IMG/VR virus record: IMGVR_UViG_3300031630_000373
Location: 1-21,761 of that record
DNA length: 21,761 bases
Origin: a virus
Reading direction: 5' to 3' (one strand)
Below, piece after piece: positions 2 through 16,927 of the stretch; position 1 is the first letter of the stretch, and each line of letters begins with the position of its first letter. The notes under the pieces were generated by a model, which saw only the letters and a program-made list of their open reading frames with translations, was not told the origin of the DNA and did not search any database. The translations under genes and the position numbers were made by a program.

Positions 2-1672
2 GCACTTGACACTATGGAAGCTGCAGGTAAAGTTCCAATCTTAGACCCAAGTGGTACAGTGAGAGGAACCGATGCAGTTTTAAAAACAGCTGAAGTTTAC
101 ACTGATGTTACATCGGAATACAAAGATCTACTTGCTCATCTTTCTGGTGAAGAAGGGTACAATCCAAACTTCTATTTAGATGGCTCAGGTATCTTAACCA
201 CAGGCGTAGGCCTTACAGCTGAGTATGTTGCTGACCCCTCACCACTTAGGGCTATGACAGAAAAGACCAATGAGGCTAAGAGTCGTGTACCTAAATACGC
301 AAGACTACACCCTCAGGTTCAGCTTGCTCTTGTTGACTCTGCTTATCGTGGTGACTTGACTAACACCAATGAGGACACTGGAGTGGTTACCTCTCAGAAA
401 TGGGTTGATCACGTAAACAACGGTGACTTTCGTAAGGCTGCTGTTGAACATATTAATCATAATGAATACAACAAAGCTAAGGGCATTAGTGGTAAAAACA
501 GAGGTCTTATCCCAAGGTTTGATTGGAGAGCTGCAGCTTTAAAAAGATCAGCAGAACCCCAGACTATACAAAAGATGCAAGATCGTAGTAAGTCAATCTA
601 TGATCAGAGAGAAGACGCTGCAATGCTTAATGGTATGGGTAGTGGAATTACTCCTGATAAGGTTCCAGAGTCAAACATCTTTAGTGATACTTTTGATTCA
701 GTTACAGATTCTGTAGAAGGATTTGTGGACAATTTGCTAGCTACTCGTAAATTTCCAGAACAAAAAGTACCACCAAAAACAACACAAGATATTCCAGTAC
801 CCGAACAAGGGACTACTGTACCTAACGCGGAGAATGAAATGGCAACACAAGCACAGGTTAAAGCTTTCATAAAGAAACGAAATGAAACACAAACACTACC
901 TGAAGGTGGTAGGGTTGACACTCCCTTGCGGAACCAACCAGCACCTACCTCAAAGTACGGTGTAATTGTAGGCAGAGAGCCTGTAGATACTGTTGGTGAA
1001 TACATAGGCCCCAACACTGTTATAGACCCTGCACTAATGCAACAAGTAGCACAAAATAGAATGCAGCAAAGTCAGCTTTATAACATACCTGTACCTACAA
1101 TTGACAACGACATACCTAGTGTTGCTAATGGTGGTGTATTCCCATTCCCTGCGGTAATCCCACAAGGAACTGTAGATCCGGGTTTACTTGCAGCATCTAA
1201 TCAACAAAAGATGATGATGGAGCAAGCTCGAATGCAACAAAATCAGCTTAACATGATGAACACACAAGGGGCTGTAGATCCGGGTTTAATTGCAGCAGCA
1301 GCTGGACAACAGTTATCTATGATGCAGCAAGCAGCTAAAGCTTCTGAAAGGGAGCCAGCTGCTATAGCTCAAGATCAAAGCAGGATGCAACAAAGTCAGC
1401 TTAACTTAGTTCAAAGGGGTGGACAAGGTTATCATTATGATCAGAATGGAAGGCTAGTTGTTAACTACACAGGCCCTGTTAACCCTGCACCACCAGTAGG
1501 TACTGTTCTTTCCAGTAATGGACAGCCTGTTACTACTGCTAGTGGCTCTATGATTGGAGCACCTACACAAAACCCAGCTTCTAAAGCTCCTGCTGGTGGT
1601 AAAGGCGCTAATGCCACACCTCAGTCAGCTATTGCACAGCTTACGGGTATGAAAGAACTCGGAGGTAAGTAA
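2..1672 (+). CDS. Virion-associated lysozyme / internal virion protein (5' end probably outside window)
   Basis: The frame is already open at base 2, and the first ATG (base 14) has no ribosome binding site, so the protein probably begins upstream. Numbering from that ATG (552 codons), residues about 38-180 look like a GH24 (T4-lysozyme type) muramidase. The triad spacing E47-x8-D56-x5-T62 matches T4 lysozyme E11/D20/T26, followed by TTGVGLT and a later basic GLIPRFDWRAAALKR stretch. Such domains in virion proteins make a local hole in peptidoglycan during DNA entry. From about residue 190 the chain becomes low-complexity: Pro/Gln-rich, then Met/Gln-rich with repeated VDPGL and RMQQSQL elements (about 335-465), then Ala/Gly/Pro-rich. 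It is first in a run of four large late genes, and its TAA overlaps the next ATG (TAATG). Placement among ejection proteins suggests a virion role rather than a free endolysin, which remains the alternative. Confidence 0.75.
   Translation, partial: ALDTMEAAGKVPILDPSGTVRGTDAVLKTAEVYTDVTSEYKDLLAHLSGEEGYNPNFYLDGSGILTTGVGLTAEYVADPSPLRAMTEKTNEAKSRVPKYARLHPQVQLALVDSAYRGDLTNTNEDTGVVTSQKWVDHVNNGDFRKAAVEHINHNEYNKAKGISGKNRGLIPRFDWRAAALKRSAEPQTIQKMQDRSKSIYDQREDAAMLNGMGSGITPDKVPESNIFSDTFDSVTDSVEGFVDNLLATRKFPEQKVPPKTTQDIPVPEQGTTVPNAENEMATQAQVKAFIKKRNETQTLPEGGRVDTPLRNQPAPTSKYGVIVGREPVDTVGEYIGPNTVIDPALMQQVAQNRMQQSQLYNIPVPTIDNDIPSVANGGVFPFPAVIPQGTVDPGLLAASNQQKMMMEQARMQQNQLNMMNTQGAVDPGLIAAAAGQQLSMMQQAAKASEREPAAIAQDQSRMQQSQLNLVQRGGQGYHYDQNGRLVVNYTGPVNPAPPVGTVLSSNGQPVTTASGSMIGAPTQNPASKAPAGGKGANATPQSAIAQLTGMKELGGK
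1019..1402 (+). repeat. Imperfect in-frame repeats encoding VDPGL and RMQQ(S/N)QL units
   Basis: Inside the lysozyme-domain gene, RMQQ(S/N)QL is encoded three times, at 1058-1078, 1229-1249 and 1382-1402. VDPGL is encoded twice, at 1172-1186 and 1274-1288, 102 bp apart, with the 15 bases identical. A related IDPALMQQ lies just before the first RMQQ unit. The spacing between RMQQ units is 171 and 153 bp, both multiples of three, so the frame is kept. The pattern suggests duplication of a Q/M-rich linker or interaction segment. Confidence 0.7.
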
Positions 1673-3831
1673 TGGCTGTTGATAGGAGTATGCCTAGATT
1701 TTCAGGCACTAACATACCTAGGCCTGTTCCTGATCCAAATCAGGGCAAGCTTAACTTTGATGGTAGGGGTCGGAAACCAAACCTAGCACCTAAACCTGTT
1801 CCACCAGTTCAACCAGTTCCAACTCAACAAGCATTAGACTTAGACAACACTGCTAAACCAAAAAATACTATACCTTCTGTAGATAAGAATGGTAACCCAA
1901 GGACTACTTTTCCAAAGGCTGCTGTAGATGATATGGGTAACAAGGTTAAACCAACTGATTATAAAAATCTGGCTAAGTTTGGTAAAGCTGCATGGAAAGC
2001 TACTAAGATTCCTAGGGCATTAACGATTCCGGGTCTTGGTGCTATGGTATTAGAAGAGGCATTGTTTCCTACAGTATATGACTCAACTGAAACTAAAGAT
2101 GCTCTTGCTGAGGAACAAGCAGGTTTTGATGAAGAAAGTATAAAAGCTTTAACTAAGGCTCAAGACAGAGTTAACTTACTAACAGATATAAACGCTGCAC
2201 CTAAGTTACTTAACGAAGCTAAGTTAGAGTTGTCTCAACTTAAAGGTTCTACAGATCCACAACAATCTATTACCGAATGGGAAAACGATGTTAAGTCAGA
2301 GTTGGCAAACAACCAAGCTATTATTGACGCACACACAAGGAACTTAAGCTTTGACCCTGATGCTCTTAGGTCTGCACTTAAACCTGCATTAGAGCAAAGG
2401 GATGCTCTTGAATCTAAGCTTGCTGATGCGTCTTCTTGGCGTAAGAGTATTGATGCAGAATCTGCAGTTAACAAAGACCCAGACGCTGTATCTGTTATGG
2501 AAATGGCTCAAGGTATGGACCCAAGTACACTACTACCTCAGCTTGGTTCTTTAGATAAAAATACAATTAAAAAAGAAACTGATAGTGTATTAGATAGGTT
2601 TATTGACGGATCAATTACTACTGTTAATCAAGCTATGTCACTTGCTGGTAAAGGACTTGGTTCATTGTTTAGCGACCCAGCTATTCAGAAAGCACTTGTG
2701 TACTACATGGGTGCTCGTCTTATGGGTTACTCTGGTAGTGGTTCAGGTATGGCTGCTGGTGAAGTTCTTCTTAAAAGCTGGGAAGATCAAGCTGCTGCTG
2801 ATGTTTTAACAACTAAGGCACAAAACAAACTCGCTGAAGATGCAGCTGTAGATCATACTAAGTCTGTTCAATTCTTTGATAAAACTACAAAGAAGATTAT
2901 CTCAGGTTACTCATCTAAAGATGGTAAGGCTTTCTATCAGGTTACAGACAAGGGGCTTAACAAAGATAAGAACGGTAATCCTATTGCTATAAACCCAGCG
3001 TCATCTGGACTTGTTACTTATAAATCAAACACTCATAAAACTTATGATGAGATTAATCAAGGTATCTTGGACTCTACTAATAAGCAGACCAATTCCTTTA
3101 TTAAAACTCTTAATGATAATCCAGATTATGATGAGAAAGATTTGGCAGCTCTTAACCAGACTTTTGGTAACGGACGTGCAGCCAGAGATGTGCTTGAAAT
3201 TGTTACTAGGGAAATGCAAGAAGCAGGTGTTGACTATGACAATGCTGCATTTTCGGCTATGTTCCAAAACATGTTAACGACTACAATGGAGAAACAAGCT
3301 GATGGTTTACGTAAAGGTGACTATGGCGAAGAGACTGCAAGCATGGTTGGTGAGTGGCGAGAAATGCAACTCAAGAGTAGCTTAACAGGTGAAGGTAATA
3401 TAGCTAACTTTGTATATGGAAAAGCTACGAAATGGAGTGGCGATGGTGTTGCCGAATATGAAGAAGGTTTTGACGCTAGTGGTCATGCTAAGGGTATGCT
3501 TGAAGAGAAGATAAACTCTCAAAAGAATTGGTGGGTTAAAGCTGCTATTGCAAATGGAGCTGATCCAATCTTAGCTAACGAAAAGATAACCACTACTAGA
3601 GTTGTTCAGGAGTTTGGACGTTTGTTCCAAGATACTGTAATGCGAGATCCAACTGCACGTGTGTACTGGTCAGATCAATCTGGTGACAGAACTAACGCAT
3701 TCATGGAGTGGATGCAGAGCAATGACACAGGTAATATTAACCATGAACATCAATACCTAGGACTTAATTCCCCTGAAGTTAGGAGTCTTTCACTTGATAT
3801 TGATTTTAATAAACCTTTTAAGATGAAGTAA
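1672..3831 (+). CDS. Probable internal virion (ejection) protein, 719 aa, coiled-coil
   Basis: No family is recognised with certainty. The start is firm: GGAGG lies 6 nt before the ATG, and the ATG overlaps the upstream stop by one base. Residues 1-70 are rich in Pro, Asn and Lys with PxPVPP-type repeats. Residues about 95-130 hold a basic amphipathic stretch ending in a short hydrophobic segment (TIPGLGAMVLEEALF). Residues about 135-270 are Lys/Glu/Leu/Ala-rich and look like coiled coil. A Gly/Ser/Met-rich, weakly hydrophobic segment (about 340-370) follows, then a polar alpha-helical C-terminal half. Length and position between a lysozyme-domain protein and a very large protein resemble the internal-core block of T7-like phages (gp14-gp15-gp16). 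The gp15-like role is inferred from size and context only, not from residues. Confidence 0.55.
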   Translation: MAVDRSMPRFSGTNIPRPVPDPNQGKLNFDGRGRKPNLAPKPVPPVQPVPTQQALDLDNTAKPKNTIPSVDKNGNPRTTFPKAAVDDMGNKVKPTDYKNLAKFGKAAWKATKIPRALTIPGLGAMVLEEALFPTVYDSTETKDALAEEQAGFDEESIKALTKAQDRVNLLTDINAAPKLLNEAKLELSQLKGSTDPQQSITEWENDVKSELANNQAIIDAHTRNLSFDPDALRSALKPALEQRDALESKLADASSWRKSIDAESAVNKDPDAVSVMEMAQGMDPSTLLPQLGSLDKNTIKKETDSVLDRFIDGSITTVNQAMSLAGKGLGSLFSDPAIQKALVYYMGARLMGYSGSGSGMAAGEVLLKSWEDQAAADVLTTKAQNKLAEDAAVDHTKSVQFFDKTTKKIISGYSSKDGKAFYQVTDKGLNKDKNGNPIAINPASSGLVTYKSNTHKTYDEINQGILDSTNKQTNSFIKTLNDNPDYDEKDLAALNQTFGNGRAARDVLEIVTREMQEAGVDYDNAAFSAMFQNMLTTTMEKQADGLRKGDYGEETASMVGEWREMQLKSSLTGEGNIANFVYGKATKWSGDGVAEYEEGFDASGHAKGMLEEKINSQKNWWVKAAIANGADPILANEKITTTRVVQEFGRLFQDTVMRDPTARVYWSDQSGDRTNAFMEWMQSNDTGNINHEHQYLGLNSPEVRSLSLDIDFNKPFKMK

Positions 3832-3843
3832 TAGGAGAATACT

Positions 3844-6800
3844 ATGGGAGAGGGTCTTGTTTTAGATCTAGGTGATTTACTCACACAAGAAAAAGAGGCT
3901 ACACAAGGCCCCCAAGAAAGCTCATTAGCTATTAAAGGGTCCGATTGGGCCTTTATTGATGGTGATACTATATTTAATTCAGTAACAGGTAAGTCAATAA
4001 GACTAGATGGAATTGACACCAGAGAAACTGCTAAGTTTATAAAAGAAAAGCCATACTCAGAGTCTGAGATTGGTGCAGATTCTGCTGCAGCTTACATAGC
4101 TGGTCTTGCAAATGAATATGGTTTTAACAGAGAAGTTTATTCAGGTGAGAAAGGTTACTATGATCGTGATCTTGGTGACTTGTATAATGAAGATGGTGAG
4201 TCTTTTGTACAAACTCTAATAAAATCTGGTGTAGCTTCTCCATCAAGATTTTCTGGTGGAGATGACGTAGGTAATGTTCTTGCAAGTGCTTTTGCTGAGA
4301 AGAGTAGAAACTCTGATAAAGTTCTAGGTACTGCCAGTGACCTGTCTTCTTTTGAGCAAGCCAGACAAGCTATCTATGAGGTTGAGACAGACCCCTATGG
4401 TGGTATGGCAGTTCAGAAGCTAATGGCCTTTGACGCTGCTGAGTACGCACGTAACCCTAACTTCTACATGGGCATTAAAACTGTTAACGCTGGTGCAGAT
4501 TACGAAGGTAAGTCTAGAACTCCTTTTGGTACTGGCTTTGACATTGGATTTGCTAACTTGTATAAAGGTTTAAATACTTTTGGTCAAGCTCTTAGTGATC
4601 GTATAGGTGCTGAAGAGACTGAGGCATCCTTTGCAGCAGACGCAATTAAGAATCAGAAGTATATAAATGCTCAACCACTTCTAAACATGAATGTAACTCA
4701 AATGGATTGGACTGAGTTTGATGAAGTATCTTCTGGACTCAGGGGTATGCTTGGTTCATCTCTACCATTCATGGGTGCAACCTTAGTTGGTATGGCTGCT
4801 ATGCCTGTAACTGCTGGTGCTTCTGCTGCACTACCTATTTCTGTTTACACAGGTATGGTATTAGATACTATGGAAGGTGACATAGCTGACAAGAATCTTG
4901 GTGTTGCTATTGTAGCTGGAACTGCTATGACTTTCTTAGACAGACTAGGACTTAAGGGTCTTGTCAGTCCTAAGATGATGCTTACCAACGAAGGTCGTAA
5001 GGAAGCGATCGGTCATATTGCTAGAGTTAAAGGTATTTCTACGGAAGAAGCATCAAACCTCTTACTGTCTATGAGTAAACGAGAGTTGCTCTCAGAGATT
5101 GGTAACGCTAAAGAGTTTGCAGCTAATCAAATACAGAAAGGTCACTTGTTTAGGGAAAGTGTTAAGCGACTATCAAGGGGAACTGCACAAGAGGGTGTGA
5201 CAGAAGCAATGCAAGAACTCACAGAGTACACTGCTGCTGTCATTGGCTCTGAGAAACAATGGAACTACGATGAAATAGAAAATCGTATGATCAATGCTGT
5301 TGTAGCAGGTGGTATTATGGGTGCTGGATTCACAGCTCCGGGCACTGCTTTCCAAGTTGCTGATTGGCATGCTGCTGCTGACATTGATAGTGATGTTGAT
5401 AATAGATTTGACAATCAAGTACATAGTAATATAGTTAAACAACAAGAAGATTCAAGGGGGTATATTCAAACAGTTGATTCCATCACAGCCACTAACTCTG
5501 CGGAAGAGAAAGTGTTTCAAGAAGGAATGGAAAACCAAAGGTTTGATAAAGCTGAGGCTCAAGAGTTAGGTAAATCTTGGAACTCTGATCAGGACTTGTC
5601 TAACCCACGAAGTGTGGACGATTGGGCTGAGATGCATGACAGGCCTAACACTAGTCTTGCTTGGATTAAATCTTTTGCAAAGAACCCTAAGGTTGCTTTA
5701 CGTGGGACAATGGATAATGCTATTCAGAAACTTGATGGTGTATCCACTACTGCTGTTAAAATGGTAGACATGATTGGTTCTTACAGGAACCGTGTGTTTC
5801 CCGGAAGGAACATGGTAATGTCTCAACAACTTAAAGTAGCTGAGTACGACAGTATGCTTTCTCCTCAGGAAGAAATTGAAGCATCCTTTAAAACTCCTAG
5901 GGGTTTAAGCTCTGCTAGTCGGTCTGACTTTGTAAGTAAGTTAATGTATAAATACAATGAAGAACTTCTTAAACCTGCAAGAGAATCTGGAAAACCTGTT
6001 AATTGGAGTAAAGCTTCAGACGAGCTTGTGTCCAACAAGCAAGCGATACTTAAGTACGACAAGGAACTTTTAACAAGATCTAATGCAATGCTTAGGGATA
6101 ACAACATTGCTATTGAAGATGGTAACACAGTCTCTAACAATCAAGATCCAATAGAGGTTCTTCAGGATTGGTCATACAGACATAAGAATCTATTGACAGA
6201 GTATATTGCTAACCATAAGGTTGAGTTTATAAACACCTTAATGTCTTCTTATCAGCTTGACTATAACACTGCTATGGATTTAACTGACTCCATTATAAAC
6301 GATGAAACAGTTAATACTATTGGTGATGCGTTTGATGTAACTAAGCATGGACTTAATCCTTCTTATAACAAGCAACGTAAAATGAACATCTCTGATCGAC
6401 CTGAGTTTGCTAAGTTCTTAGAGCAGAACATATTTAAAAACATGGGTGATGCTTCACGAAGTGCTGCAAGATTTCAGGCTCATCGTAAGTTTTTAGGTAA
6501 GGATTCGGTGTACCTTAATCGTATGCTTAATGATACCTACATGGAGATTCGTGAAGCTAAGGGTGAGCAAGCTGCAGTTAAACACACTTCAGAACTTGCA
6601 CATGATATTCGTAATGCTTTGAATGCTGAATCAGGTAACTACAAAAGGATAGAGAATCAAAACTTAAAGCAAGCTCAGAAATACTTAACAGTTGTAACTA
6701 TGCTTCAGTCTTTATCTAATGCTGCTTTCTCTTCTATACCAGAAGTTGGTATGATCTTTAACGGTGTTCCTCGGGAAGTTATGGTTAAGAACACAGCTAC

Positions 6801-7932
6801 TTACGGTTATCTATTTGGTAATGCTGTTGGCTCTTGGATTAGAAACTTGGGTGTTGTAGCTAGGGTTGCAAAGCCCCGTGATACTCTTGAAACTATTATT
6901 GAAAAGAAACTAGCAGAGTATCGTTCTAAGGGTGACACTGACCCTAGGTTTGTGTACTACACAGATATGAAACAAATGCTACGTAGTACTGGATTTATGT
7001 CTCAGGAAACTGGTGCAGCTACAACTACAGGTGTTCAAGAAACTAACCAGTTAACTAAGGGGATGGCTGACGCTTTCTTCAAAGCTAACTTCTTACACGA
7101 CCAACAAGACATGCATCGTATGATGCGTCTATCACTCTTTAATGATTTTCTTATAGGTAAGATAGATCTTATTGATAGGTATGAAGGTCAGACTGACACA
7201 GTTGGTGTTGCTGAAGCTAAGAAAATGTTGAGAGACTTAGGGATACCCCTCAGTTCTTTACAACCTTTATCACATAAGATGAAGCGTGGTGAAACACTCA
7301 CTGATACTGAAGCAGCTATCTACAAAGATGTGTTTCTTAATGGAGCTGCTAACTTTGTTAACCAAGCTATACCTATGCCTAACGCATTGAACAGGCCACT
7401 GATCTACAGTGACCCACACTTTGCAATGTTAACACAGTTTAATGGTTTTACTTCAACGTTCCAAGCTAACCAGATACCGATGATGTGGGATCAAGTTAAG
7501 CGAGGAGGTCCAAGTTCTAAGGGATTAACTTACGGAACCTTTGCATCAGCTAGCACTATGCTTCTTCTTGCATTTGCATCTCAAGGAATCAAAGATGAAC
7601 TTAAGTATGGAGAATCTTCACCGTACCTTTCAGACCCACAGAAAATACAACGAGCTATATACTCAAGCGGATTACTAGGAACTATGGAGCGTGTGATCGG
7701 GAGTGACTTCCTGTTTCCCTTGTATCCTGAAAGTTCTTATGGTGCTTCAGAGTATGTGTGGGATCATGTTGCAGGTGAAGCCCCTGCTGCTGGTACAGTT
7801 GAGCGTACTTATGGTATTATTGAAGGTCTGATAACATCAGATGATGCGCAATTCAAAAGAAACTTATACGGAAGTATACCTATCTTTGCTCCTTACAAAA
7901 ACAGAATGATAAACTGGAATACTGATGATTAA
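3844..7932 (+). CDS. Very large internal virion protein with N-terminal staphylococcal-nuclease (SNase) domain
   Basis: This is a 1362-residue protein with AGGAG 6 nt before the ATG. Residues about 33-140 match the thermonuclease fold: IDGDT (D39, D41), RLDGID-T-R-E (R53, D58, T59, E61), YYDRDLGDLY (R108) and a FVQTLIKSGVA helix. These correspond to staphylococcal nuclease D19, D21, R35, D40, T41, E43 and R87, so all calcium-binding and catalytic positions appear intact. Membrane-like Ala/Gly/Met-rich stretches lie at about residues 298-372 and 484-505, and another near 1226-1245. The rest is polar and helical, and the last 200 residues have the look of the C-terminal region of large phage polyvalent or ejection proteins. 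It follows a lysozyme-domain gene and a coiled-coil gene, so the likely role is an ejected, membrane-crossing protein. The nuclease is strongly supported; ejection into the host is inference. Confidence 0.75.
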   Translation: MGEGLVLDLGDLLTQEKEATQGPQESSLAIKGSDWAFIDGDTIFNSVTGKSIRLDGIDTRETAKFIKEKPYSESEIGADSAAAYIAGLANEYGFNREVYSGEKGYYDRDLGDLYNEDGESFVQTLIKSGVASPSRFSGGDDVGNVLASAFAEKSRNSDKVLGTASDLSSFEQARQAIYEVETDPYGGMAVQKLMAFDAAEYARNPNFYMGIKTVNAGADYEGKSRTPFGTGFDIGFANLYKGLNTFGQALSDRIGAEETEASFAADAIKNQKYINAQPLLNMNVTQMDWTEFDEVSSGLRGMLGSSLPFMGATLVGMAAMPVTAGASAALPISVYTGMVLDTMEGDIADKNLGVAIVAGTAMTFLDRLGLKGLVSPKMMLTNEGRKEAIGHIARVKGISTEEASNLLLSMSKRELLSEIGNAKEFAANQIQKGHLFRESVKRLSRGTAQEGVTEAMQELTEYTAAVIGSEKQWNYDEIENRMINAVVAGGIMGAGFTAPGTAFQVADWHAAADIDSDVDNRFDNQVHSNIVKQQEDSRGYIQTVDSITATNSAEEKVFQEGMENQRFDKAEAQELGKSWNSDQDLSNPRSVDDWAEMHDRPNTSLAWIKSFAKNPKVALRGTMDNAIQKLDGVSTTAVKMVDMIGSYRNRVFPGRNMVMSQQLKVAEYDSMLSPQEEIEASFKTPRGLSSASRSDFVSKLMYKYNEELLKPARESGKPVNWSKASDELVSNKQAILKYDKELLTRSNAMLRDNNIAIEDGNTVSNNQDPIEVLQDWSYRHKNLLTEYIANHKVEFINTLMSSYQLDYNTAMDLTDSIINDETVNTIGDAFDVTKHGLNPSYNKQRKMNISDRPEFAKFLEQNIFKNMGDASRSAARFQAHRKFLGKDSVYLNRMLNDTYMEIREAKGEQAAVKHTSELAHDIRNALNAESGNYKRIENQNLKQAQKYLTVVTMLQSLSNAAFSSIPEVGMIFNGVPREVMVKNTATYGYLFGNAVGSWIRNLGVVARVAKPRDTLETIIEKKLAEYRSKGDTDPRFVYYTDMKQMLRSTGFMSQETGAATTTGVQETNQLTKGMADAFFKANFLHDQQDMHRMMRLSLFNDFLIGKIDLIDRYEGQTDTVGVAEAKKMLRDLGIPLSSLQPLSHKMKRGETLTDTEAAIYKDVFLNGAANFVNQAIPMPNALNRPLIYSDPHFAMLTQFNGFTSTFQANQIPMMWDQVKRGGPSSKGLTYGTFASASTMLLLAFASQGIKDELKYGESSPYLSDPQKIQRAIYSSGLLGTMERVIGSDFLFPLYPESSYGASEYVWDHVAGEAPAAGTVERTYGIIEGLITSDDAQFKRNLYGSIPIFAPYKNRMINWNTDD

Positions 7933-7964
7933 TAATATACAAGAAGTACTAGGAGGTCTAGCTA

Positions 7965-10900
7965 ATGGCTAAGTTTAATGCAGGTAATGCAGGGCAAGTA
8001 AAACGTCTTGAAGCATCTAGGGCTATGGATTCTAATGGCATACAAGATGCCATCGCAGATAAAATTCAAGTAGGTTTAACCCAAGATAGTGTGTTTCCAA
8101 CGGAAGAAGGTCAGTACGATAATGCGGTTCTACCTGCTGCACCTGTTGGAGTTAATGATGGGAAGCAAGAAATGCTTCCTGTTAATAACCCAGAACAGAT
8201 AGCTGCACTTGAGTTACAGCAACAACAAAGAGCTAGGTCTAGTTCTATTCAGCAGTTAGCTGACACAGAAGTCTTATCTAATTGGGACAAGAGTAGTATT
8301 GCTGGTATCGTAGGTGAGGCTAACAAGCCTAGGTTAATCCATGCTCTTACTAACCTTAGTAAAACTGATTCAGTTAAGATACCAGTGGATACAGGTTTGG
8401 AAGGTTCAGCTGAGAAAAGGAATTATGTTGCACAAAACATGATGAACTTTAAAGCACCTTCTGTGAGGGTAGCTGAAGATCCTGATGCACCTAAAGAGAA
8501 GATGGTTGATGCCGCAAGGACTAGGCCATTGACTGCAGCTAATCTTTTCTCTCATCTTGGAATGATACAAGAGACTAGTCCAGATGATGTTCGTATGTTT
8601 GAGGTTACATCTGATGCACAAGTCTTAGGGTTTGTTGTTATGGAGCATGAGTACATGCGTCATATGCAAGAGAGAAATATTATATCTCCTGAGATGATTG
8701 ATAATTTTACTGATGATGAAATCAATCAACTAACTGGATTAAGTTCTCAAGATACAGAGTCTGACATATCTGTTGGTAAGCTTGGAAATATGTATCATGA
8801 ACAGTTAATGATGTATCAGCAGGTGGCTCAAGGTGGTAAGGATATTATCCCTGATAAACATCTTGACCCTGCTAATCAATTAACTAAAGAAGCTTATGAA
8901 CAGTTAGGTCTTTGGGTTAAGCAGCAGTACAACCTAGGTAACCCTGCTAACACTAAGTTAATAGATGTTGGTACTAATGGTAACACTCGTTATGATTATG
9001 TACTTACACCTACTGGTGTTCTTGCTATTGAGAACGCTAGGAAAGATGCTATAGAGCCTGATGTACGCATTAGAACTCAGATCATCAATGACCCTAAGTC
9101 ATTCCCAGCTTATCAAAAAGATAAATCAGACACTAATAAGAACTTTAAATTACCATCTGACAAGAAGCGAAGACTGCAACCTGAAGTTGAAGCAATGTCA
9201 AACACATCAGCTGTTAAACATATCATAACACCTAATCGTTTAAAGTCAGGTTTATTGATAGCTTTGCAAGCTTTTAAGTATGCTAGCCAAACATTAAGCA
9301 ATGATTTAGTTGGTGGCTCTGAGATTCAAGTAGACGGTCAAACAGTTGGTATAAATGGTAGGGTTGTAGTTGAATCATGGCAAGGTAACTCTCTTGGCAT
9401 TGGTCAGAAGATGGCAGACAAGATCAACAACACTGCTGAGAACTTGTTATTAAAAGCTAAAGCACTTACCAAAGAAATAGAATCAGACCGTATGATGAAT
9501 CGACCTGTTGACTATGATAAGCAAAATCAGATCAGAGTTCTTCTTGATTTCCATAAGACTGCCCAGACAAACGCTTGGCGTAAAGCTAGGTATAACCAAG
9601 AAGCTACTAAGGCTTTGGCTATGGTTCAAGATGTTGTCGAGGTCTATGGTCTTCCTATTGGATTCCCTACTTTCCTTCAGTCAGGAACATCAAGAATAAG
9701 CTATGCCACTCAGGTTATGAATGTTCAAAACAACAAGTTTGCTAGGCAACTGTTTGGAAGTGGTACTAAGTACGAGGTTAAACCTAATACTAATACTAAT
9801 AAAGAACAAGCTATGCTTATAACTTGGGCAGGTCACTTCTTTACAGATGGTGCTTTTGTACCAGAGAAGATGCTTATTAACATGAGAGAACGTATCAACT
9901 CAAGCCCACCTGATCCTAAGCTTATGGCAATAGCTTCAGTTGGAAAGAAGCTTAAGGAAACTATGGACAGTTATAACACAGACTTACCTGTGGACTCTGT
10001 TCTTAAAATGGAAATAGTAAACGGTGAAGTTCAAGGTGTAGGTGCTGCAATCAACGCACCACGTCCTAAATTTAGTTCAGATGATGATGTTAAAAGGTTC
10101 TTAACCGAAGCAGCAAAGCACCCCAATGAGGTTGTTAATTTAATAGAGGAAGCCATTGAGCTTTCTAATTATATGGATGCGGTTAAGAGTAATGGAACTA
10201 TTATGTCACAGATGAGACCCATTGAAGTTGATGGTATCATGAATGGTATTGCAAGTATGTCTGCTCAACTTGGAATCATAGATGTTATGTACCGAGTTGG
10301 TGTTCTTCGTGAACATCCTGAAAAAGTTATTGCAGATTACCAAGGGCTTGAGGGTAACCTACGTGACCTTATGGTTAACAACATGAGGGAATCTATCAGC
10401 GATATAACTGTTAACCCTGAGCTTATGAGTAAATGGGGCATTGACGAGTCTAATCACACTGAGATAGTAAACTTACTTGAGTTAGCTATACTTAATAAAG
10501 ATGAGTTCCTTAAGCCACCTATTATGACTTTTGCTTATGGACAGGCTATTGAGCGTATGTTGGGTGGAGTTATGAACGCAATAAGTACTGACGAGAACCT
10601 TAGGGCTGCGGCTTTAATTAGTTCTTTTGGTACTGCAGGTACAGGTAAGATCTTACATAAGATACTTTCTAGGGGTTTAACAGAAACTCTTTCACCTGAG
10701 ATTGTTGCTTTTGCAGAAGCTCTTAAAGATATGACTCAGGTTGGTATGCTATCTAATGAACCTATTCGTTTTGTAAAAGCTACTGGCACTACAACTTCAA
10801 GTAATTCTTTAGCTATGCAAGATACTGGTGATAAAGTTAGATCCACTATACAAATGGAATACTCTGACCCAGTTAAAGCAGGTAGAAGGTTTGGTGACCC

Positions 10901-11753
10901 TAAGTCAGACAACCCCTCTACTCAGTTAGATGAGAAGGGTAAGCCTTACGAGAAAGCTATACGTGCAGAACTACCAATGACAATAAAGAAGCTAACTGCT
11001 TTAGGTCGTACAGCACAAGGTGGTTTCTCTATGAGGCAGGGTATACTAGCTCAAGCTATCATAAGTAATGATGGCTCTGTGTTTTCTAAGCTTATGTCTG
11101 GACCTATGTATAAGGCTCTTCAGAGAGAGGCAGGATCTCAAGTACCTTATGTTTCATTAATATATGATGCATTCATTGGAGACTTGGGTTCTTTCATACC
11201 ACTCCTTAAGCTATCTAATCAGACTTGGGTTAATGTTAACCTTAAGTACGATCTTATCAAGTCTCTTGCTGATGGTGCTGCTGAATCACATGCGCGTGGT
11301 AAGGCTAGGATCAATGCTCTTGCTGCGAAAGACCCAGAAGGTCTTGTTGAAGATAGAGAACATGCTGAGTATGTTGTTGGCCTAGCGGCAGAGCTTGTTA
11401 AGGAAGAGAAAGGTGGTCTCGTATACTACAGAAGTTCTGACTCAAAGAGTTTAGCTACTCTTAATAAGTTACTCACTGACCTTGATGCTCTGTTTGATAA
11501 TAGAACTCAGAACACATCGTTAAGTTCTTCTAAACTTAGGTCTTTAAATGACAGGAGTCACATGCTAACTAACAGAGAACTCGCTGATCTTTTTCAGAAG
11601 TTTACACCACGAACTATGGGTAAGATTGCACGTATCAGGGCGATTGGTAATGAAGCTAAGAAAGGACGAACCACTATCCTTAACACCTTAGGTTCTAAAC
11701 CAATCATCCATGAGTTTGCAGTTGATGGTCTTAAAGAGTTTAACTTTAACTGA
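7965..11753 (+). CDS. Virion-type single-subunit RNA polymerase (N4 vRNAP-like), 1262 aa
   Basis: The start is set by AGGAGG 8 nt before the ATG. The polymerase motifs of the T7/N4 RNA polymerase family occur in order. FP-x8-R with R577 fits the T/DxxGR region (T7 R425). Motif A is VDGIMNGIASMSA with D756 (T7 DGSCSGIQHFSA, D537). Motif B is KPPIMTFAYG with K850, Y858 and G859 (T7 KRSVMTLAYG, K631/Y639/G640). Motif C is LIYDAFIGDLGSF with D1068 (T7 LIHDSFGT, D812). The A-to-B spacing is 94 residues, the same as in T7. Residues 1-450 are an N-terminal extension with a Gln-rich patch near 83-90. As the last gene of the late operon, behind three ejection-type proteins, it is expected to be packaged and ejected like N4 gp50. 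N4 vRNAP is about 3500 aa, with a core of about 1100 aa, so this is a core-sized stand-alone version. Polymerase family is well supported; packaging is inferred. Confidence 0.85.
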   Translation: MAKFNAGNAGQVKRLEASRAMDSNGIQDAIADKIQVGLTQDSVFPTEEGQYDNAVLPAAPVGVNDGKQEMLPVNNPEQIAALELQQQQRARSSSIQQLADTEVLSNWDKSSIAGIVGEANKPRLIHALTNLSKTDSVKIPVDTGLEGSAEKRNYVAQNMMNFKAPSVRVAEDPDAPKEKMVDAARTRPLTAANLFSHLGMIQETSPDDVRMFEVTSDAQVLGFVVMEHEYMRHMQERNIISPEMIDNFTDDEINQLTGLSSQDTESDISVGKLGNMYHEQLMMYQQVAQGGKDIIPDKHLDPANQLTKEAYEQLGLWVKQQYNLGNPANTKLIDVGTNGNTRYDYVLTPTGVLAIENARKDAIEPDVRIRTQIINDPKSFPAYQKDKSDTNKNFKLPSDKKRRLQPEVEAMSNTSAVKHIITPNRLKSGLLIALQAFKYASQTLSNDLVGGSEIQVDGQTVGINGRVVVESWQGNSLGIGQKMADKINNTAENLLLKAKALTKEIESDRMMNRPVDYDKQNQIRVLLDFHKTAQTNAWRKARYNQEATKALAMVQDVVEVYGLPIGFPTFLQSGTSRISYATQVMNVQNNKFARQLFGSGTKYEVKPNTNTNKEQAMLITWAGHFFTDGAFVPEKMLINMRERINSSPPDPKLMAIASVGKKLKETMDSYNTDLPVDSVLKMEIVNGEVQGVGAAINAPRPKFSSDDDVKRFLTEAAKHPNEVVNLIEEAIELSNYMDAVKSNGTIMSQMRPIEVDGIMNGIASMSAQLGIIDVMYRVGVLREHPEKVIADYQGLEGNLRDLMVNNMRESISDITVNPELMSKWGIDESNHTEIVNLLELAILNKDEFLKPPIMTFAYGQAIERMLGGVMNAISTDENLRAAALISSFGTAGTGKILHKILSRGLTETLSPEIVAFAEALKDMTQVGMLSNEPIRFVKATGTTTSSNSLAMQDTGDKVRSTIQMEYSDPVKAGRRFGDPKSDNPSTQLDEKGKPYEKAIRAELPMTIKKLTALGRTAQGGFSMRQGILAQAIISNDGSVFSKLMSGPMYKALQREAGSQVPYVSLIYDAFIGDLGSFIPLLKLSNQTWVNVNLKYDLIKSLADGAAESHARGKARINALAAKDPEGLVEDREHAEYVVGLAAELVKEEKGGLVYYRSSDSKSLATLNKLLTDLDALFDNRTQNTSLSSSKLRSLNDRSHMLTNRELADLFQKFTPRTMGKIARIRAIGNEAKKGRTTILNTLGSKPIIHEFAVDGLKEFNFN

Positions 11754-12630: not shown

Positions 12631-14805
12631 TTAACAAAAGAAGTAATCAGAAGATATGATCTCAGATATATCTAAGGATCCTAACTCTGGTTGTTTAAGT
12701 TCATAACCCTCTCGGGTCTCTAACAACATCTGCTCTATGGCAGTAAAGAAGTTAGTGCTATTGTACATCATGGCAAACTGCCACTTGGTGTGGTCAATTA
12801 ATTTATTCACATCACATGCATGAGTTGAAAAGGAATCATGTATAGCTCCGAAGTCTCCAGAGAAACTCTGAATAACTTTAGCCATGTGTGCTGCATCCAT
12901 TGAGTGAATAAAGTTAGGTGAGCATCCAGACGCAAACGATCTCCTACACGGCAACAAGTCACCATTGGAAGTGATGTAAGGTATCTTGATGCTGTGACCT
13001 ATTTGACCAAGGCCACGTATGGTACTGCGTACAGTTATATTCTTCTGACGCCACACTTCGTACAACACTGGGAATCCTGAGGGAGTTGTCCAACGTGTAC
13101 ATGTCTCACCTGTTGATAAGATATGATCAGTCATCTTCTGTATAAACTTCATGGTCTTTAAGGGACCTACGCAGGTGTCGTTGATTGCAAGTATAAGTTG
13201 TTTTGACAGAGGGGTACAGTCATCTTCTGTGATATTGTACTTCTTATCATAACCTTCAACCTTACAGTCGTAGTACATGTTTGCTGCAATCTTTTTCTGA
13301 CCAGCAGAGTAAGCCCTAGTCATAGAGCCACGCTTTGCTATGCCTTTCCTTATAGCCTTCATTGGTATGTTACGTTCTGCAAACCACTCAGGCATCCTGT
13401 CTATCAATCGCTTAGCTACTTGTACATAAAAGTCTTTTTGTATCTCACTTGGTACTAAGGATACTAGCTCACCAGCTTCCTTGTCCTTGGATATAGCCGC
13501 TAGGTGTTGCCACCCATTGTTACTACCATCAACCGGGATAGGTGTACGACTCATGTGTACTTTATTGTTTAGCACAGAATGATTATATCCAGCTACATCT
13601 AAGCAACAAGCAAGAAAGCTAACTGGTTTTTCTGCCTCTGTCCTGAAGCTTTGTCCATCCGCTAAGAGGTTTATCCAAGTCAGGTTGTTTAACGTCCACA
13701 ACTCCCTGTCCTTTAGCGTCATCTTGTCTACTGATATTGTGGATAATCCTTCGTCTTGAAGATAGGTTCTGTAATCCGCTGTTATCCATTCTGGTAGTTC
13801 CTCTAATTCATATGATTGATTGTAAGAACAAGCTGTGTGTATGCACAGCCACCTGTAACCTTCAGTATCCATAGCTTTTGCATAGGCAAACTCAAACAAT
13901 CCCTTGGATACATCAGACCCTTGGAAGTTTAAGAATGGTTCAGTGTAGTAAACACGCCCACGATAATCACACTCGACCATTTGATAGAAGTCACGTAGAC
14001 CTATGGCATGTACCTTAGATATAACAAACTTCATCTCTATAGCTTTTGACTTAGCTTTTATAGACTGATCTTCAAGATCTATGAACAGACCTAGGTTAGT
14101 CTCTAAGGCTTTAGCCACTGTACTGTTAAGCCTCCACGGTGTTTGTTGCAGCTTGTTAAGGGCAGTAATAAAAGGTGCTCCTATAAGCTGCTTAAAGTCC
14201 TCCTCTGAACTCATACGTTTTATGTAAGGCCTCTTGGTAAACTCATTACGCAAGGACATAATGTCTTTTGGTGGTGTAAAGGACGTACCTATAAGTGTAC
14301 TCTTTATGTACTCAGGGGGTAGGTCTCCAAGCTCTGCCCATGTACTTAGCAACTTGATAATGTAAGGTGCTCGGAACCCTTTGTACTCCCTTTCGATATG
14401 TATATAACCTAGTTGTAGAAAAGCTTCTAGGTATAAGTCACCCACTGCTAAAATCTCTTGATGGTTAGTGTTGAGTACCCCTAAAGAAGATAGCACCTGT
14501 AAGCCTATCACAGACGATGTGACGGTTAGTTTGAAGGGGTTAGCCGATGACCTTCTGGACTTTTGATAAGCTGCCACAGCACCTGCTACGGCCCTTACAG
14601 TTAGCTTCTCGTAGGTATATCCGTAGGGTATCATTGAAGAGATTAATCTGGCCCCTTCTGGGGGCCTCCCACGGAAGGTATTACCCTCACATCTTTCTTT
14701 TATGTATGATGTTATACGTTCTACACCAGCAGTAGACTTCTCTTGATCACCCAGTGTACTCGAGGAAGTCCTCTTGTCCTTTGAGTCTGTTAGTTCTGGT
14801 ATCAT
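12631..14805 (-). CDS. T7-type DNA-directed RNA polymerase
   Basis: Single-subunit phage RNA polymerase. Numbered from the ATG at 14805 (724 aa): DYRGRVYY (D280, R284; T7 D421/R425), motif A VDGSNNGWQHLAA (D426), motif B AKRGSMTRAYS (K491, Y499), motif C AIHDSFSTHA (D657), and a C-terminus SDYFFC matching the T7 FAFA foot. T7 RNAP is 883 aa; the shortfall is spread over the N-terminal domain and the A-B interval (65 against 94 residues). The T7 R627 position is Lys, with Arg one residue earlier, and the T7 G640 position is Ser. The start is uncertain: an ATG at 14889 would overlap the helicase gene by 143 bp, the ATG at 14805 overlaps by 59 bp, and neither has a strong ribosome site. It would transcribe middle or late genes from phage promoters, none of which I could identify. 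Confidence 0.92.
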   Translation of the reverse strand: MIPELTDSKDKRTSSSTLGDQEKSTAGVERITSYIKERCEGNTFRGRPPEGARLISSMIPYGYTYEKLTVRAVAGAVAAYQKSRRSSANPFKLTVTSSVIGLQVLSSLGVLNTNHQEILAVGDLYLEAFLQLGYIHIEREYKGFRAPYIIKLLSTWAELGDLPPEYIKSTLIGTSFTPPKDIMSLRNEFTKRPYIKRMSSEEDFKQLIGAPFITALNKLQQTPWRLNSTVAKALETNLGLFIDLEDQSIKAKSKAIEMKFVISKVHAIGLRDFYQMVECDYRGRVYYTEPFLNFQGSDVSKGLFEFAYAKAMDTEGYRWLCIHTACSYNQSYELEELPEWITADYRTYLQDEGLSTISVDKMTLKDRELWTLNNLTWINLLADGQSFRTEAEKPVSFLACCLDVAGYNHSVLNNKVHMSRTPIPVDGSNNGWQHLAAISKDKEAGELVSLVPSEIQKDFYVQVAKRLIDRMPEWFAERNIPMKAIRKGIAKRGSMTRAYSAGQKKIAANMYYDCKVEGYDKKYNITEDDCTPLSKQLILAINDTCVGPLKTMKFIQKMTDHILSTGETCTRWTTPSGFPVLYEVWRQKNITVRSTIRGLGQIGHSIKIPYITSNGDLLPCRRSFASGCSPNFIHSMDAAHMAKVIQSFSGDFGAIHDSFSTHACDVNKLIDHTKWQFAMMYNSTNFFTAIEQMLLETREGYELKQPELGSLDISEIISSDYFFC

Positions 14806-16375
14806 AGTATGCTGATCCGCAGTCTCCAGTTCGTCCTGTGAATCGTGACTTAAGTACTCGGAGTTTAATTGTGTTTCTTTCATCTTCATCTTCTGCCACT
14901 AAGTTACGAGAGAATGTAATTATATCAAAGCTAATCTGTTTAATCGAACCTGAACCCTTGATATCATCAATAGATGACAGGTGTCCTTCTTCAAAAGATT
15001 TACCTTGTGATTTCCTGAGGTGACTGATAAGACCTAGCCATACGTTATGTTTCTTGACTATCTTAAGTAGGTCAGACATGACGGAGTCTATAGCTTCGTT
15101 ACCTGTCTTTCCGTCAGCTCCTTCAGAAACTGCAATGGTGATATGATCAAGGATGATATACTGGCACCCAAGCAAGCATAGGTTTTCAATTTGATCAATG
15201 AGACTAGAATCAGACACAGCTCCGTTGTGGTCGAGCAGGATGAGCCTTTCATTACCAAATACTCTTTCAAATGCAGCACGTTCTTGCTCAACAGTTGGGT
15301 CTGAAGGTGTAAACATCTTGATAAACTTCTCCGCAGAATCTCCAATGCTTTCTTCAAGAGATACAAGGCCAATGCTTTCATCTGTATTATCCTCCAGTTC
15401 TAGTATAATTTCTTTAATCATTGTTGATTTACCTGACCCTGTGCCAGATGTGAACAATACAATCTCACCCTTACGCATACCATCTAGCTTTGCATTAAGA
15501 CCTTCAAGACACTTAGGGTACGGCACAGACTCCACAGATTTACGTTCTACGTATGCTTCCCAGATAGCTTCACCACGTACAATAGCTGCTGGTGTGTAGC
15601 TTCGTGCACTGAACACAGCACTTATAATCTCAGTTGGGTTAGCCACCAGTGCATCACATGGGTCATTGGCAGACAGAGATGCGACCTTAGTCTTATCCCA
15701 ACCAATTATTTTAGCTGCTTCTGCTACTGCTTTATCTCCAGCATCATCTTGATCAAACATTAAGATGACTTCCTTAAATGATCGTAACCAATCTCGGTTA
15801 GCCACAAGTATCTTCATGTTAGATGAGGATGGTAGAGAAACTACTGGGTATGTCTTCTTGTATTTAGTGAGCATAGCTTGCTGAACTGCAATAGCATCTA
15901 GCTCACCCTCAGTTATGATCACCTTGAAACCACCGGGCTGGAACTTAGACTGACCAAACAGTTCAAGCTTAGCATTCTTTAGGTCACCTACAACACGGAA
16001 CTCCTTAGGGAGTGTGCGCTTCTTGTACGCAACTATCTTACCCTTCACTGTGTATGGGTAGTAGTGTGCATTTATTGTACCATTAGAGTCATAAGATACT
16101 TTCATATCGTACTCGTCACATGCAGTCTTAGTTAGACCACGCTCACGTACACCTGCACTGTCATAGTTTTGTATATCTTGAAGTGAATCGCCACTCATAT
16201 CGTACTCTCGTTGTTTAGTTGGGTTAAACTTTGACACTATTGTGTCATCATATTGATCTAAGAATGCTGGCTTGTTACATGCAAAGCATTTACCTCTACC
16301 ATTAGACCACAGTGCTACTGCATCTGATGATCCGCAATGGTTACATGGGTAGTGTTTAGTGAATGAGTCACTCAT
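14747..16375 (-). CDS. T7 gp4-like primase-helicase
   Basis: A 542-residue bifunctional replication protein of T7 gp4 type (566 aa). The zinc-binding domain has C11, C14, C30 and C33 (CNHCGSSD and CFAC). The TOPRIM primase core has ITEGELDA (E156) and MFDQDDAG (D208, D210). The RecA-like helicase has Walker A SGTGSGKST (K316) and Walker B YIILDH (D410). A GTG at 16384 is in frame, but it lies inside the AGGTGG ribosome site of the ATG at 16375, so I choose the ATG. That ATG overlaps the TGA of a small upstream frame (TGATG). It would unwind DNA ahead of the polymerase and make primers. It lies upstream of the RNA polymerase gene, whose start runs into its 3' end. Confidence 0.95.
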   Translation of the reverse strand: MSDSFTKHYPCNHCGSSDAVALWSNGRGKCFACNKPAFLDQYDDTIVSKFNPTKQREYDMSGDSLQDIQNYDSAGVRERGLTKTACDEYDMKVSYDSNGTINAHYYPYTVKGKIVAYKKRTLPKEFRVVGDLKNAKLELFGQSKFQPGGFKVIITEGELDAIAVQQAMLTKYKKTYPVVSLPSSSNMKILVANRDWLRSFKEVILMFDQDDAGDKAVAEAAKIIGWDKTKVASLSANDPCDALVANPTEIISAVFSARSYTPAAIVRGEAIWEAYVERKSVESVPYPKCLEGLNAKLDGMRKGEIVLFTSGTGSGKSTMIKEIILELEDNTDESIGLVSLEESIGDSAEKFIKMFTPSDPTVEQERAAFERVFGNERLILLDHNGAVSDSSLIDQIENLCLLGCQYIILDHITIAVSEGADGKTGNEAIDSVMSDLLKIVKKHNVWLGLISHLRKSQGKSFEEGHLSSIDDIKGSGSIKQISFDIITFSRNLVAEDEDERNTIKLRVLKSRFTGRTGDCGSAYYDTRTNRLKGQEDFLEYTG

Positions 16376-16527
16376 CAGTTCCACCTACTTTCTTTTAAGG
16401 ATTTAGTATCAGTACGTCTGGTACTTGCTTTGGACTTAGCATCAAGTCTCTGTTGTTTCTTCTCCTTTGGCTTCAATAAGTAATCTTCCGCTTCTGTAGA
16501 TTTCGTCAAGTCTTGTTTTTGTTTCAT
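16375..16527 (-). CDS. Possible small Lys-rich protein, about 50 aa
   Basis: A tentative gene. The frame ends with TGA overlapping the primase-helicase ATG (TGATG), a classic coupling junction, and covers the otherwise empty 66 bp between the GIY-YIG-like gene and the helicase. The product is very basic (KKPEKKQQ-like, KSKASTRR, KSLKE) with no motif. The start is unclear: an ATG at 16527 and a GTG at 16563 both lie inside the upstream gene and lack a good ribosome site, and a TTG about 33 codons from the end follows GGAAG. It may simply be a translated spacer or chance frame. Confidence 0.35.
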   Translation of the reverse strand: MKQKQDLTKSTEAEDYLLKPKEKKQQRLDAKSKASTRRTDTKSLKESRWN

Positions 16528-16927
16528 CTGATATTGCTTCTTTTGGAATAAATTTAATTGCACCTATCTGTCTGTTTAAATACAGAGGTACACCTAACAG
16601 GCATTTCTCTGTGAGAACATCTAAGTACCATTGGACTTTACACTCTGCTGCTGACAAGCCACCTCTTGTTTCAAACAATTGAATGATCTCGTAAGACAAT
16701 TCAGAACCATTTACTTTTAGTTCATTGATATGTTTGGAGGAGCTTGTGTACGACTTCCAGTTAGACTCTTTGTCTCTCTTGGTTTTCTTATATGAATGGA
16801 ACTGTTTCTTACCTACGTATCTTATAGGGTTACCGTCAGGTACAGATACAGTTATAAGATATATGAAACCAAAGTAATCGTCAACCTCAAAGGATTCTCC
16901 ATTATAAGACCAGTGTCCAAGGCTCAT
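16442..16927 (-). CDS. GIY-YIG-like nuclease family protein, 161 aa
   Basis: The N-terminal half has the GIY-YIG pattern: GFIYLI (20-25) for GIY, YVGKKQF (37-43) for YIG, then a basic loop, SNWKSYTSSS, a conserved-looking Glu (E96) in AAECKVQWY, and an Asn (N118) in YLNRQ. The first motif is degenerate (FIYLI rather than GIYYI), as in several small phage proteins annotated as putative nucleases. No separate DNA-binding domain is seen, only a helical, charged C-terminus. The ATG overlaps the preceding gene's stop by 4 nt (ATGA). It could be a recombination or host-DNA nuclease, or a reduced homing endonuclease. It lies inside the operon between the exonuclease and helicase genes. Confidence 0.65.
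   Translation of the reverse strand: MSLGHWSYNGESFEVDDYFGFIYLITVSVPDGNPIRYVGKKQFHSYKKTKRDKESNWKSYTSSSKHINELKVNGSELSYEIIQLFETRGGLSAAECKVQWYLDVLTEKCLLGVPLYLNRQIGAIKFIPKEAISDETKTRLDEIYRSGRLLIEAKGEETTET

What the first reader, a model, noticed from the sequence alone, without database searches (positions are those of the whole stretch)
3940..4265. Complete SNase active site at the N-terminus of a giant ejection-type protein
Residues 33-140 keep every catalytic and calcium-binding position of staphylococcal nuclease (D39, D41, R53, D58, T59, E61, R108). I know of no well-described case in the T7/N4 internal core proteins. A nuclease entering with the phage genome would have to spare phage DNA. It could act in the periplasm, on host DNA, on plasmids or on defence-related nucleic acid, and would supply nucleotides for the RNR route encoded here.
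Basis: partly seen in the sequence, partly recalled or inferred. Interest (0 to 1): 0.7.

Follow-up and report, generated by a model that had tools for sequence, protein, structure and literature searches.

The report
Nuclease domain on phage ejection protein
A large group of marine viruses of bacteria carries an intact DNA/RNA-cutting enzyme domain, of the staphylococcal nuclease type, on the front end of the giant protein that is probably pushed into the host ahead of the viral genome; its active site is almost unchanged in all 92 relatives examined, so it very probably works, but what it cuts and how the virus protects its own DNA are unknown.

Summary
Residues 33-140 of the 1362-aa protein at 3844-7932 are a staphylococcal-nuclease (SNase) domain with all catalytic residues. 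Profile-to-PDB search (E 1e-6 to 5e-8) and Foldseek (prob 1.00) put SNase on top. The rest is homologous to LUZ24 particle protein gp50; gene order, a lysozyme-bearing neighbour and total lack of cysteine (as in T7 gp15/gp16) support an ejection (internal core) protein.

The domain is a clade-wide trait. Scans seeded only on the protein's body found it in every relative with a complete 5' end (about 98 proteins). Among 92 distinct domains (mean identity 30%), SNase Arg35, Glu43, Arg87, Asp19 and Asp21 are essentially invariant. Nine relatives join lysozyme + SNase + body in one chain. Two cultured phages, Roseobacter CRP-7 and Aeromonas phiA008, have it, annotated 'hypothetical protein'; LUZ24, KIT05, JB8 and a KPP25-like phage lack it. 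I found no description in the open literature.

I infer a Ca2+-dependent nuclease delivered with the ejection apparatus, most likely acting in the envelope at the entry site. Supplying nucleotides to the ribonucleotide reductase is unlikely. Virion presence, activity and target are untested.

The parts
3844..7932 (+). Gene of the 1362-aa SNase-bearing ejection-type protein
   Evidence: ORF; relatives; CRP-7 gp34 is the isolate counterpart
3940..4263 (+). SNase domain, residues 33-140
   Evidence: Pfam, PDB profile matches, Foldseek
3958..3966 (+). D39-G40-D41 codons (SNase D19, D21)
   Evidence: invariant; 91/92
4000..4002 (+). R53 codon (SNase R35)
   Evidence: 92/92
4015..4020 (+). D58-T59 codons (SNase D40, T41)
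   Evidence: present here, variable in relatives
4024..4026 (+). E61 codon (SNase E43, catalytic)
   Evidence: 92/92
4165..4167 (+). R108 codon (SNase R87)
   Evidence: 92/92
4537..7605 (+). Body of the protein (residues 232-1254), homologous to LUZ24 gp50
   Evidence: hhalign prob 98.9, E 2e-17; PHROG 6958
2..1672 (+). Lysozyme-bearing protein (5' end cut by the window; 591 aa in G001), same module; lysozyme domain about 149-517
   Evidence: PF00959 E 0.004, PHROG 7 and 37474; no cysteine
1672..3831 (+). 719-aa protein of the same module, no known family, no cysteine
7965..11753 (+). 1262-aa protein of the same module, no known family, no cysteine

Best explanation
The gene encodes the largest ejection (internal core) protein of a LUZ24-related marine podovirus. 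Its N-terminal ~110 residues are a catalytically competent SNase-family nuclease, packaged in the virion as part of that protein and expelled with it ahead of the genome. Shown here: fold and active site, near-absolute conservation of the catalytic residues, fusion to an ejection-type body throughout a clade, linkage or fusion to lysozyme. Inferred: presence in the virion, nuclease activity, calcium dependence, place of action. I place the action most likely in the cell envelope at the entry site, beside the lysozyme, where calcium is plentiful (about 10 mM in seawater) and where it would break down nucleic acid met there, while the phage's own DNA passes inside the protein channel. Low calcium in the cytoplasm during assembly, the acidic domain, and burial or incomplete folding in the core are the likely reasons why phage DNA is not cut.
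For: SNase fold and active site. R35, E43, R87 92/92 and D19, D21 91/92 at 30% mean identity (the exception L102 has a shifted SDVDT). Domain present in all relatives with a complete 5' end in body-only scans. dN/dS 0.10-0.20. Body homologous to LUZ24 particle protein gp50. Gene order as in LUZ24 and CRP-7. No cysteine in the four-gene module; 4 cysteines in 133,296 residues of 98 relatives; none in T7 gp15/gp16 and LUZ24 gp50. Lysozyme-SNase fusions in nine relatives. T7 gp16 carries its N-terminal transglycosylase at the same place and it acts in the periplasm (PMC11440229). Domain charge median -7.8.
Against: No proteomics of any SNase-bearing phage; no activity test. D40 and Y85 are not conserved in the family, so activity may be weaker or use another metal. 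What nucleic acid there is to cut in the periplasm is unclear. Ejection proteins can reach the cytoplasm in other phages. The acidic charge may only reflect the generally acidic protein.
Confidence: 0.55

Rival explanations
1. The SNase domain is carried into the cytoplasm (like N4 virion RNA polymerase or polyvalent effectors) and attacks the host chromosome, plasmids, host RNA or defence-related nucleic acid in the first minutes of infection.
For: Polyvalent proteins with DNase-type domains, some fused to lysozyme, are proposed to enter with phage DNA (PMC5512222). Aeromonas phage phiA008 joins SNase with an HExxH peptidase-like motif on one 2050-aa chain, as in that model.
Against: Cytoplasmic calcium is far below SNase needs (established knowledge); a non-specific nuclease would meet the incoming phage genome; no HExxH motif in the marine clade that could release the domain (0 of 104).
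Confidence: 0.3
2. The nuclease works before or during assembly, or on the phage's own DNA (end processing, trimming), or the domain is cut off and not in the particle.
For: The domain lies in the core, next to packaged DNA; DNA may spool around podovirus ejectosomes (PMC11440229).
Against: No cleavage motif or separate gene seen; the fusion is kept in all relatives with a complete 5' end except one frameshifted contig; replication-side nucleases are encoded elsewhere.
Confidence: 0.1
3. The domain is a catalytically dead OB-fold used only to bind DNA or as a structural plug.
For: Y85 and D40 vary.
Against: The catalytic R35, E43, R87 and D19, D21 are the most conserved residues of the domain, more so than its core.
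Confidence: 0.05
4. The nuclease supplies nucleotides to the phage's ribonucleotide reductase pathway.
For: The phage encodes NrdA, NrdB, MazG and a DNA polymerase.
Against: SNase chemistry gives 3'-phosphates; RNR acts on ribonucleotides, not on DNA breakdown products; few copies enter per virion. RNR also occurs in a LUZ24-type phage without SNase (KIT05).
Confidence: 0.02

Closest known systems
Staphylococcal (micrococcal) nuclease family, PF00565
   Same: OB-fold, DxDT strand, R35, D40, T41, E43, Y85, R87 equivalents
   Different: Fused to a ~1200-aa phage protein; acidic (median charge -7.8), whereas S. aureus nuclease is basic (own knowledge); D40 and Y85 vary in the family; activity untested
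LUZ24 gp50 / PHROG 6958 virion structural (ejection-type) proteins
   Same: Homologous body over residues 232-1254, same place in gene order, no cysteine
   Different: LUZ24 gp50, KIT05, JB8 and CRPAP1904 proteins lack the SNase domain
Roseobacter phage CRP-7 gp34 and Aeromonas phage phiA008 UIS74281
   Same: SNase at the N-terminus of a giant protein with the same body family
   Different: CRP-7 gp34 only about 23% identical overall; phiA008 protein is 2050 aa with an HExxH motif and lies in another part of the tree; both annotated hypothetical
T7 gp16 and PhiM1 tetrameric ejection protein
   Same: Largest core protein with an enzyme module; in T7 at the N-terminus; no cysteine in T7 gp16
   Different: Enzyme is a peptidoglycan hydrolase; no sequence homology of the body found to T7 gp16
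Polyvalent proteins (Iyer et al. 2017, PMC5512222)
   Same: Giant phage protein with enzyme domains thought to enter with the DNA; lysozyme + nuclease on one chain in nine relatives
   Different: SNase is not named in that paper's main text; the window protein has one recognised enzyme domain; no HExxH peptidase motif in the clade

Membership tests
SNase family (PF00565) | SNase OB-fold | tested here: met
   AlphaFold2 + Foldseek, prob 1.00; PDB profile match E 5e-8
SNase family (PF00565) | Catalytic R35, E43, R87 and metal ligand D21 | tested here: met
   Present in the window protein; 92/92, 92/92, 92/92 and 91/92 in relatives
SNase family (PF00565) | Curated Pfam score cut-off | tested here: inconclusive
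   Window protein 19 against 21 bits; relatives L042 24.4 and phiA008 29.9 pass
SNase family (PF00565) | Calcium-dependent DNase/RNase activity | not testable with these tools
   Needs the expressed domain
LUZ24 gp50-type ejection protein | Homologous body | tested here: met
   hhalign prob 98.9, E 2e-17 over residues 232-1254
LUZ24 gp50-type ejection protein | Place at the end of the structural module, beside other core proteins | tested here: met
LUZ24 gp50-type ejection protein | Present in the virion and ejected | not testable with these tools
   Needs virion proteomics; LUZ24 gp50 is annotated as a phage particle protein
T7 gp16 family | Sequence homology to T7 gp16 | tested here: not met
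   hhalign probability 0.2
Polyvalent proteins | Two or more disparate enzyme domains on one chain | tested here: inconclusive
   Met in nine relatives (lysozyme + SNase); only one enzyme domain recognised in the window protein

The most novel reading that the evidence does not exclude
A major clade of marine podoviruses always arms its ejection apparatus with a non-specific nuclease that is silent in the virion and switched on at entry (by calcium or refolding), and uses it in the first minutes to destroy host or defence-related nucleic acid while its own DNA is shielded in the channel: a virion-delivered nuclease weapon with built-in self-sparing.
Probability: 0.3. Interest if true: 0.8.

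Novelty: new variant of a known kind. Interest (0 to 1): 0.62.

Why it matters
Enzymes on podovirus core proteins are known for peptidoglycan (T7 gp16, PhiM1) and transcription (N4), and DNases are proposed in polyvalent proteins. A nuclease kept intact in every examined member of a large, deeply branching marine clade is, as far as the searched open literature goes, undescribed. It poses a sharp question: how can a particle hold an apparently competent non-specific nuclease against its own tightly packed DNA in seawater calcium, and what is cut at entry? It can be tested now, because two cultured phages (CRP-7 on a Roseobacter RCA-lineage host, phiA008 on Aeromonas) carry it.

Tried and rejected
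Chance resemblance: rejected. Dead OB-fold: rejected on invariance. One-off fusion or assembly artefact: rejected, since the same architecture occurs in independent contigs and isolates. Ascertainment bias (relatives found through the SNase motif): tested with body-only patterns and a body-only query; all relatives with a complete 5' end still have the domain, and the one apparent exception, L210, has it in the neighbouring frame just upstream. Both scans kept only the best 80 loci, so more distant bodies without SNase (as in LUZ24) are not counted. T7 gp16 homology: not found. A solved relative of the body: none. A repeated element at the conserved gene start: single copy, not explained. Alignment A5 could not be used for a scan. 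The dN/dS script stopped after two pairs because of a division by zero; only those two pairs are used. Ten paper searches found no SNase-bearing ejection protein; one paper (phiRIO-1) was not held.

Full report
WHAT IS THERE. The window is a whole 21.8-kb virus fragment. Rightward it carries a lysozyme-bearing protein (2-1672, 5' end cut), a 719-aa protein (1672-3831), the 1362-aa protein in question (3844-7932) and a 1262-aa protein (7965-11753). Convergent to these lie MazG, a T7-type RNA polymerase, primase-helicase, a SegE-like GIY-YIG endonuclease, 5'-3' exonuclease, family A DNA polymerase and NrdB. A 51.7-kb relative (G001) with the identical protein adds terminase, portal, major head protein, tail genes and NrdA. 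The host is unknown.

Residues 33-140 are an SNase domain. The single-sequence Pfam score is borderline (19 against 21 bits), but family profiles hit staphylococcal nuclease structures at E 1.1e-6 and 5.3e-8, and AlphaFold2 models have only SNase among the listed PDB matches. The window's domain alone also finds Bacillus 'thermonuclease family' proteins on plasmids at 35% identity, E 6e-3.

IT IS A CLADE-WIDE TRAIT. The first scan gave 20 relatives. A scan with patterns from the body only gave 194 or more relatives (best 80 kept); of 68 distinct proteins from these and earlier loci, CRP-7 included, 67 have the domain, and the exception is cut off by the contig end. A second scan with a query lacking the domain gave 36 further proteins: all with a complete 5' end have it, except L210, where it lies in the neighbouring frame just upstream. 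Across 92 distinct domains with mean pairwise identity 30% (minimum 14%), R35, E43 and R87 are 92/92 and D19 and D21 91/92; the one exception, L102, has an SDVDT motif shifted by a gap. In a 72-row alignment the only invariant columns are D39, D41, R53, E61, R108 and G118. D40 varies (D63, N10, E10, S7, T1, Q1). The domain is under purifying selection like the body (dN/dS 0.10-0.20 against 0.11-0.14 in two pairs).

THE CARRIER IS AN EJECTION-TYPE PROTEIN. Residues 232-1254 align with LUZ24 gp50, a phage particle protein (hhalign probability 98.9), and the family with PHROG 6958 virion structural proteins. Gene order matches LUZ24 and CRP-7. The four window proteins of this module (3899 residues) contain no cysteine, against 46 in 2786 residues of seven replication-side proteins. 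The 98 SNase-bearing relatives contain 4 cysteines in 133,296 residues. T7 gp15, T7 gp16, LUZ24 gp50 and the KIT05, phiA008 and CRPAP1904 counterparts contain none. I read this as a mark of proteins that pass through the oxidising periplasm (inference; S. aureus nuclease itself lacks cysteine, so the domain alone proves little). T7 gp16 is not detectably homologous: the protein may work like gp16 but is not shown to belong to its family.

LYSOZYME LINK. Nine relatives have a phage-lysozyme-like domain directly in front of the SNase domain on the same chain. In the window the lysozyme sits on a protein encoded two genes upstream. Similar lysozyme modules occur on Vibrio N4-type virion RNA polymerases and on an Alteromonas internal virion protein. 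The SNase domain thus sits where other podoviruses put their entry enzymes.

DISTRIBUTION. A tree of the bodies puts 56 SNase-bearing rows (marine contigs and CRP-7) on one side of a well-supported branch. LUZ24, KIT05, JB8 and a KPP25-like protein lie on the other side without the domain, and phiA008, with it, among them: two changes of state (phiA008 and CRP-7 are long branches, so their exact places are unsure). In the phage record collection only CRP-7 and phiA008 were found to have it; both are annotated 'hypothetical protein'. A structure-library entry of an uncultured phage protein of 1342 aa already bears the automatic name 'SNase-like, OB-fold'.

HOW IT MOST LIKELY WORKS. Shown: fold, active site, conservation, fusion, linkage. 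Inferred: packaged in the core, expelled ahead of the DNA, active as a calcium-dependent nuclease, most likely at the entry site in the envelope. Reasons for the envelope: the domain's position equals that of the T7 gp16 transglycosylase, which degrades peptidoglycan during entry (PMC11440229); it is coupled to lysozyme; calcium is abundant there and scarce in the cytoplasm. Phage DNA would be spared by its channel during entry and by low calcium during assembly; within the virion the acidic domain (median charge -7.8) or its burial may matter. The main rival is delivery into the cytoplasm as in the polyvalent-protein model (PMC5512222). Nucleotide supply for RNR is chemically implausible.

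NOVELTY. None of ten full-text searches of an open-access library turned up a paper on an SNase domain on an ejection protein; subscription papers were not searchable. I rate it a new variant of a known kind: an enzyme-bearing podovirus core protein with a new enzyme class, found in every complete member examined of one clade.

Noticed in passing
3835-3935: The ribosome-binding site and first ~30 codons of the SNase gene are unusually conserved in nucleotide sequence, synonymous sites included (27/28 identical codons against L006, about 58% elsewhere). The block is single copy in the window; cause unknown (regulatory element, translation control or a recombination join).
   Followed up: partly
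2-11753: All four rightward proteins (3899 residues) are free of cysteine, as are T7 gp15/gp16 and LUZ24 gp50; absence of cysteine may be a simple marker for recognising podovirus ejection modules.
   Followed up: partly
L227 (Aeromonas phage phiA008), L228 (Pseudomonas phage CRPAP1904), L229 (Roseobacter phage CRP-810): Their giant proteins of about 2000 aa in this gene region carry HExxH metallopeptidase-like motifs, suggesting a link to polyvalent proteins; phiA008 has SNase as well.
   Followed up: partly
12631-16384, minus strand: The RNA polymerase ORF and the primase-helicase ORF overlap by 143 bases (14747-14889) as listed; the true polymerase start may lie further downstream.
   Followed up: no
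16442-16927, minus strand: SegE-like GIY-YIG endonuclease (PF19835, E 6e-24) between the primase-helicase and exonuclease genes; possibly a homing endonuclease.
   Followed up: no
L210 about 3330-4050: The SNase part and the body are in different frames in this contig: a sequencing error or a real frameshift.
   Followed up: no
BFVD entries A7KUR9_2 (965-aa piece) and A0A6J5NQ80 (1342 aa): Other large viral proteins with an SNase-like fold by Foldseek; not identified further.
   Followed up: no
L221, L222, L223: Relatives of the protein lie in contigs filed under Dehalococcoidia, Bacteroidetes and Pelagibacter genomes, probably phage contigs binned with those genomes.
   Followed up: no
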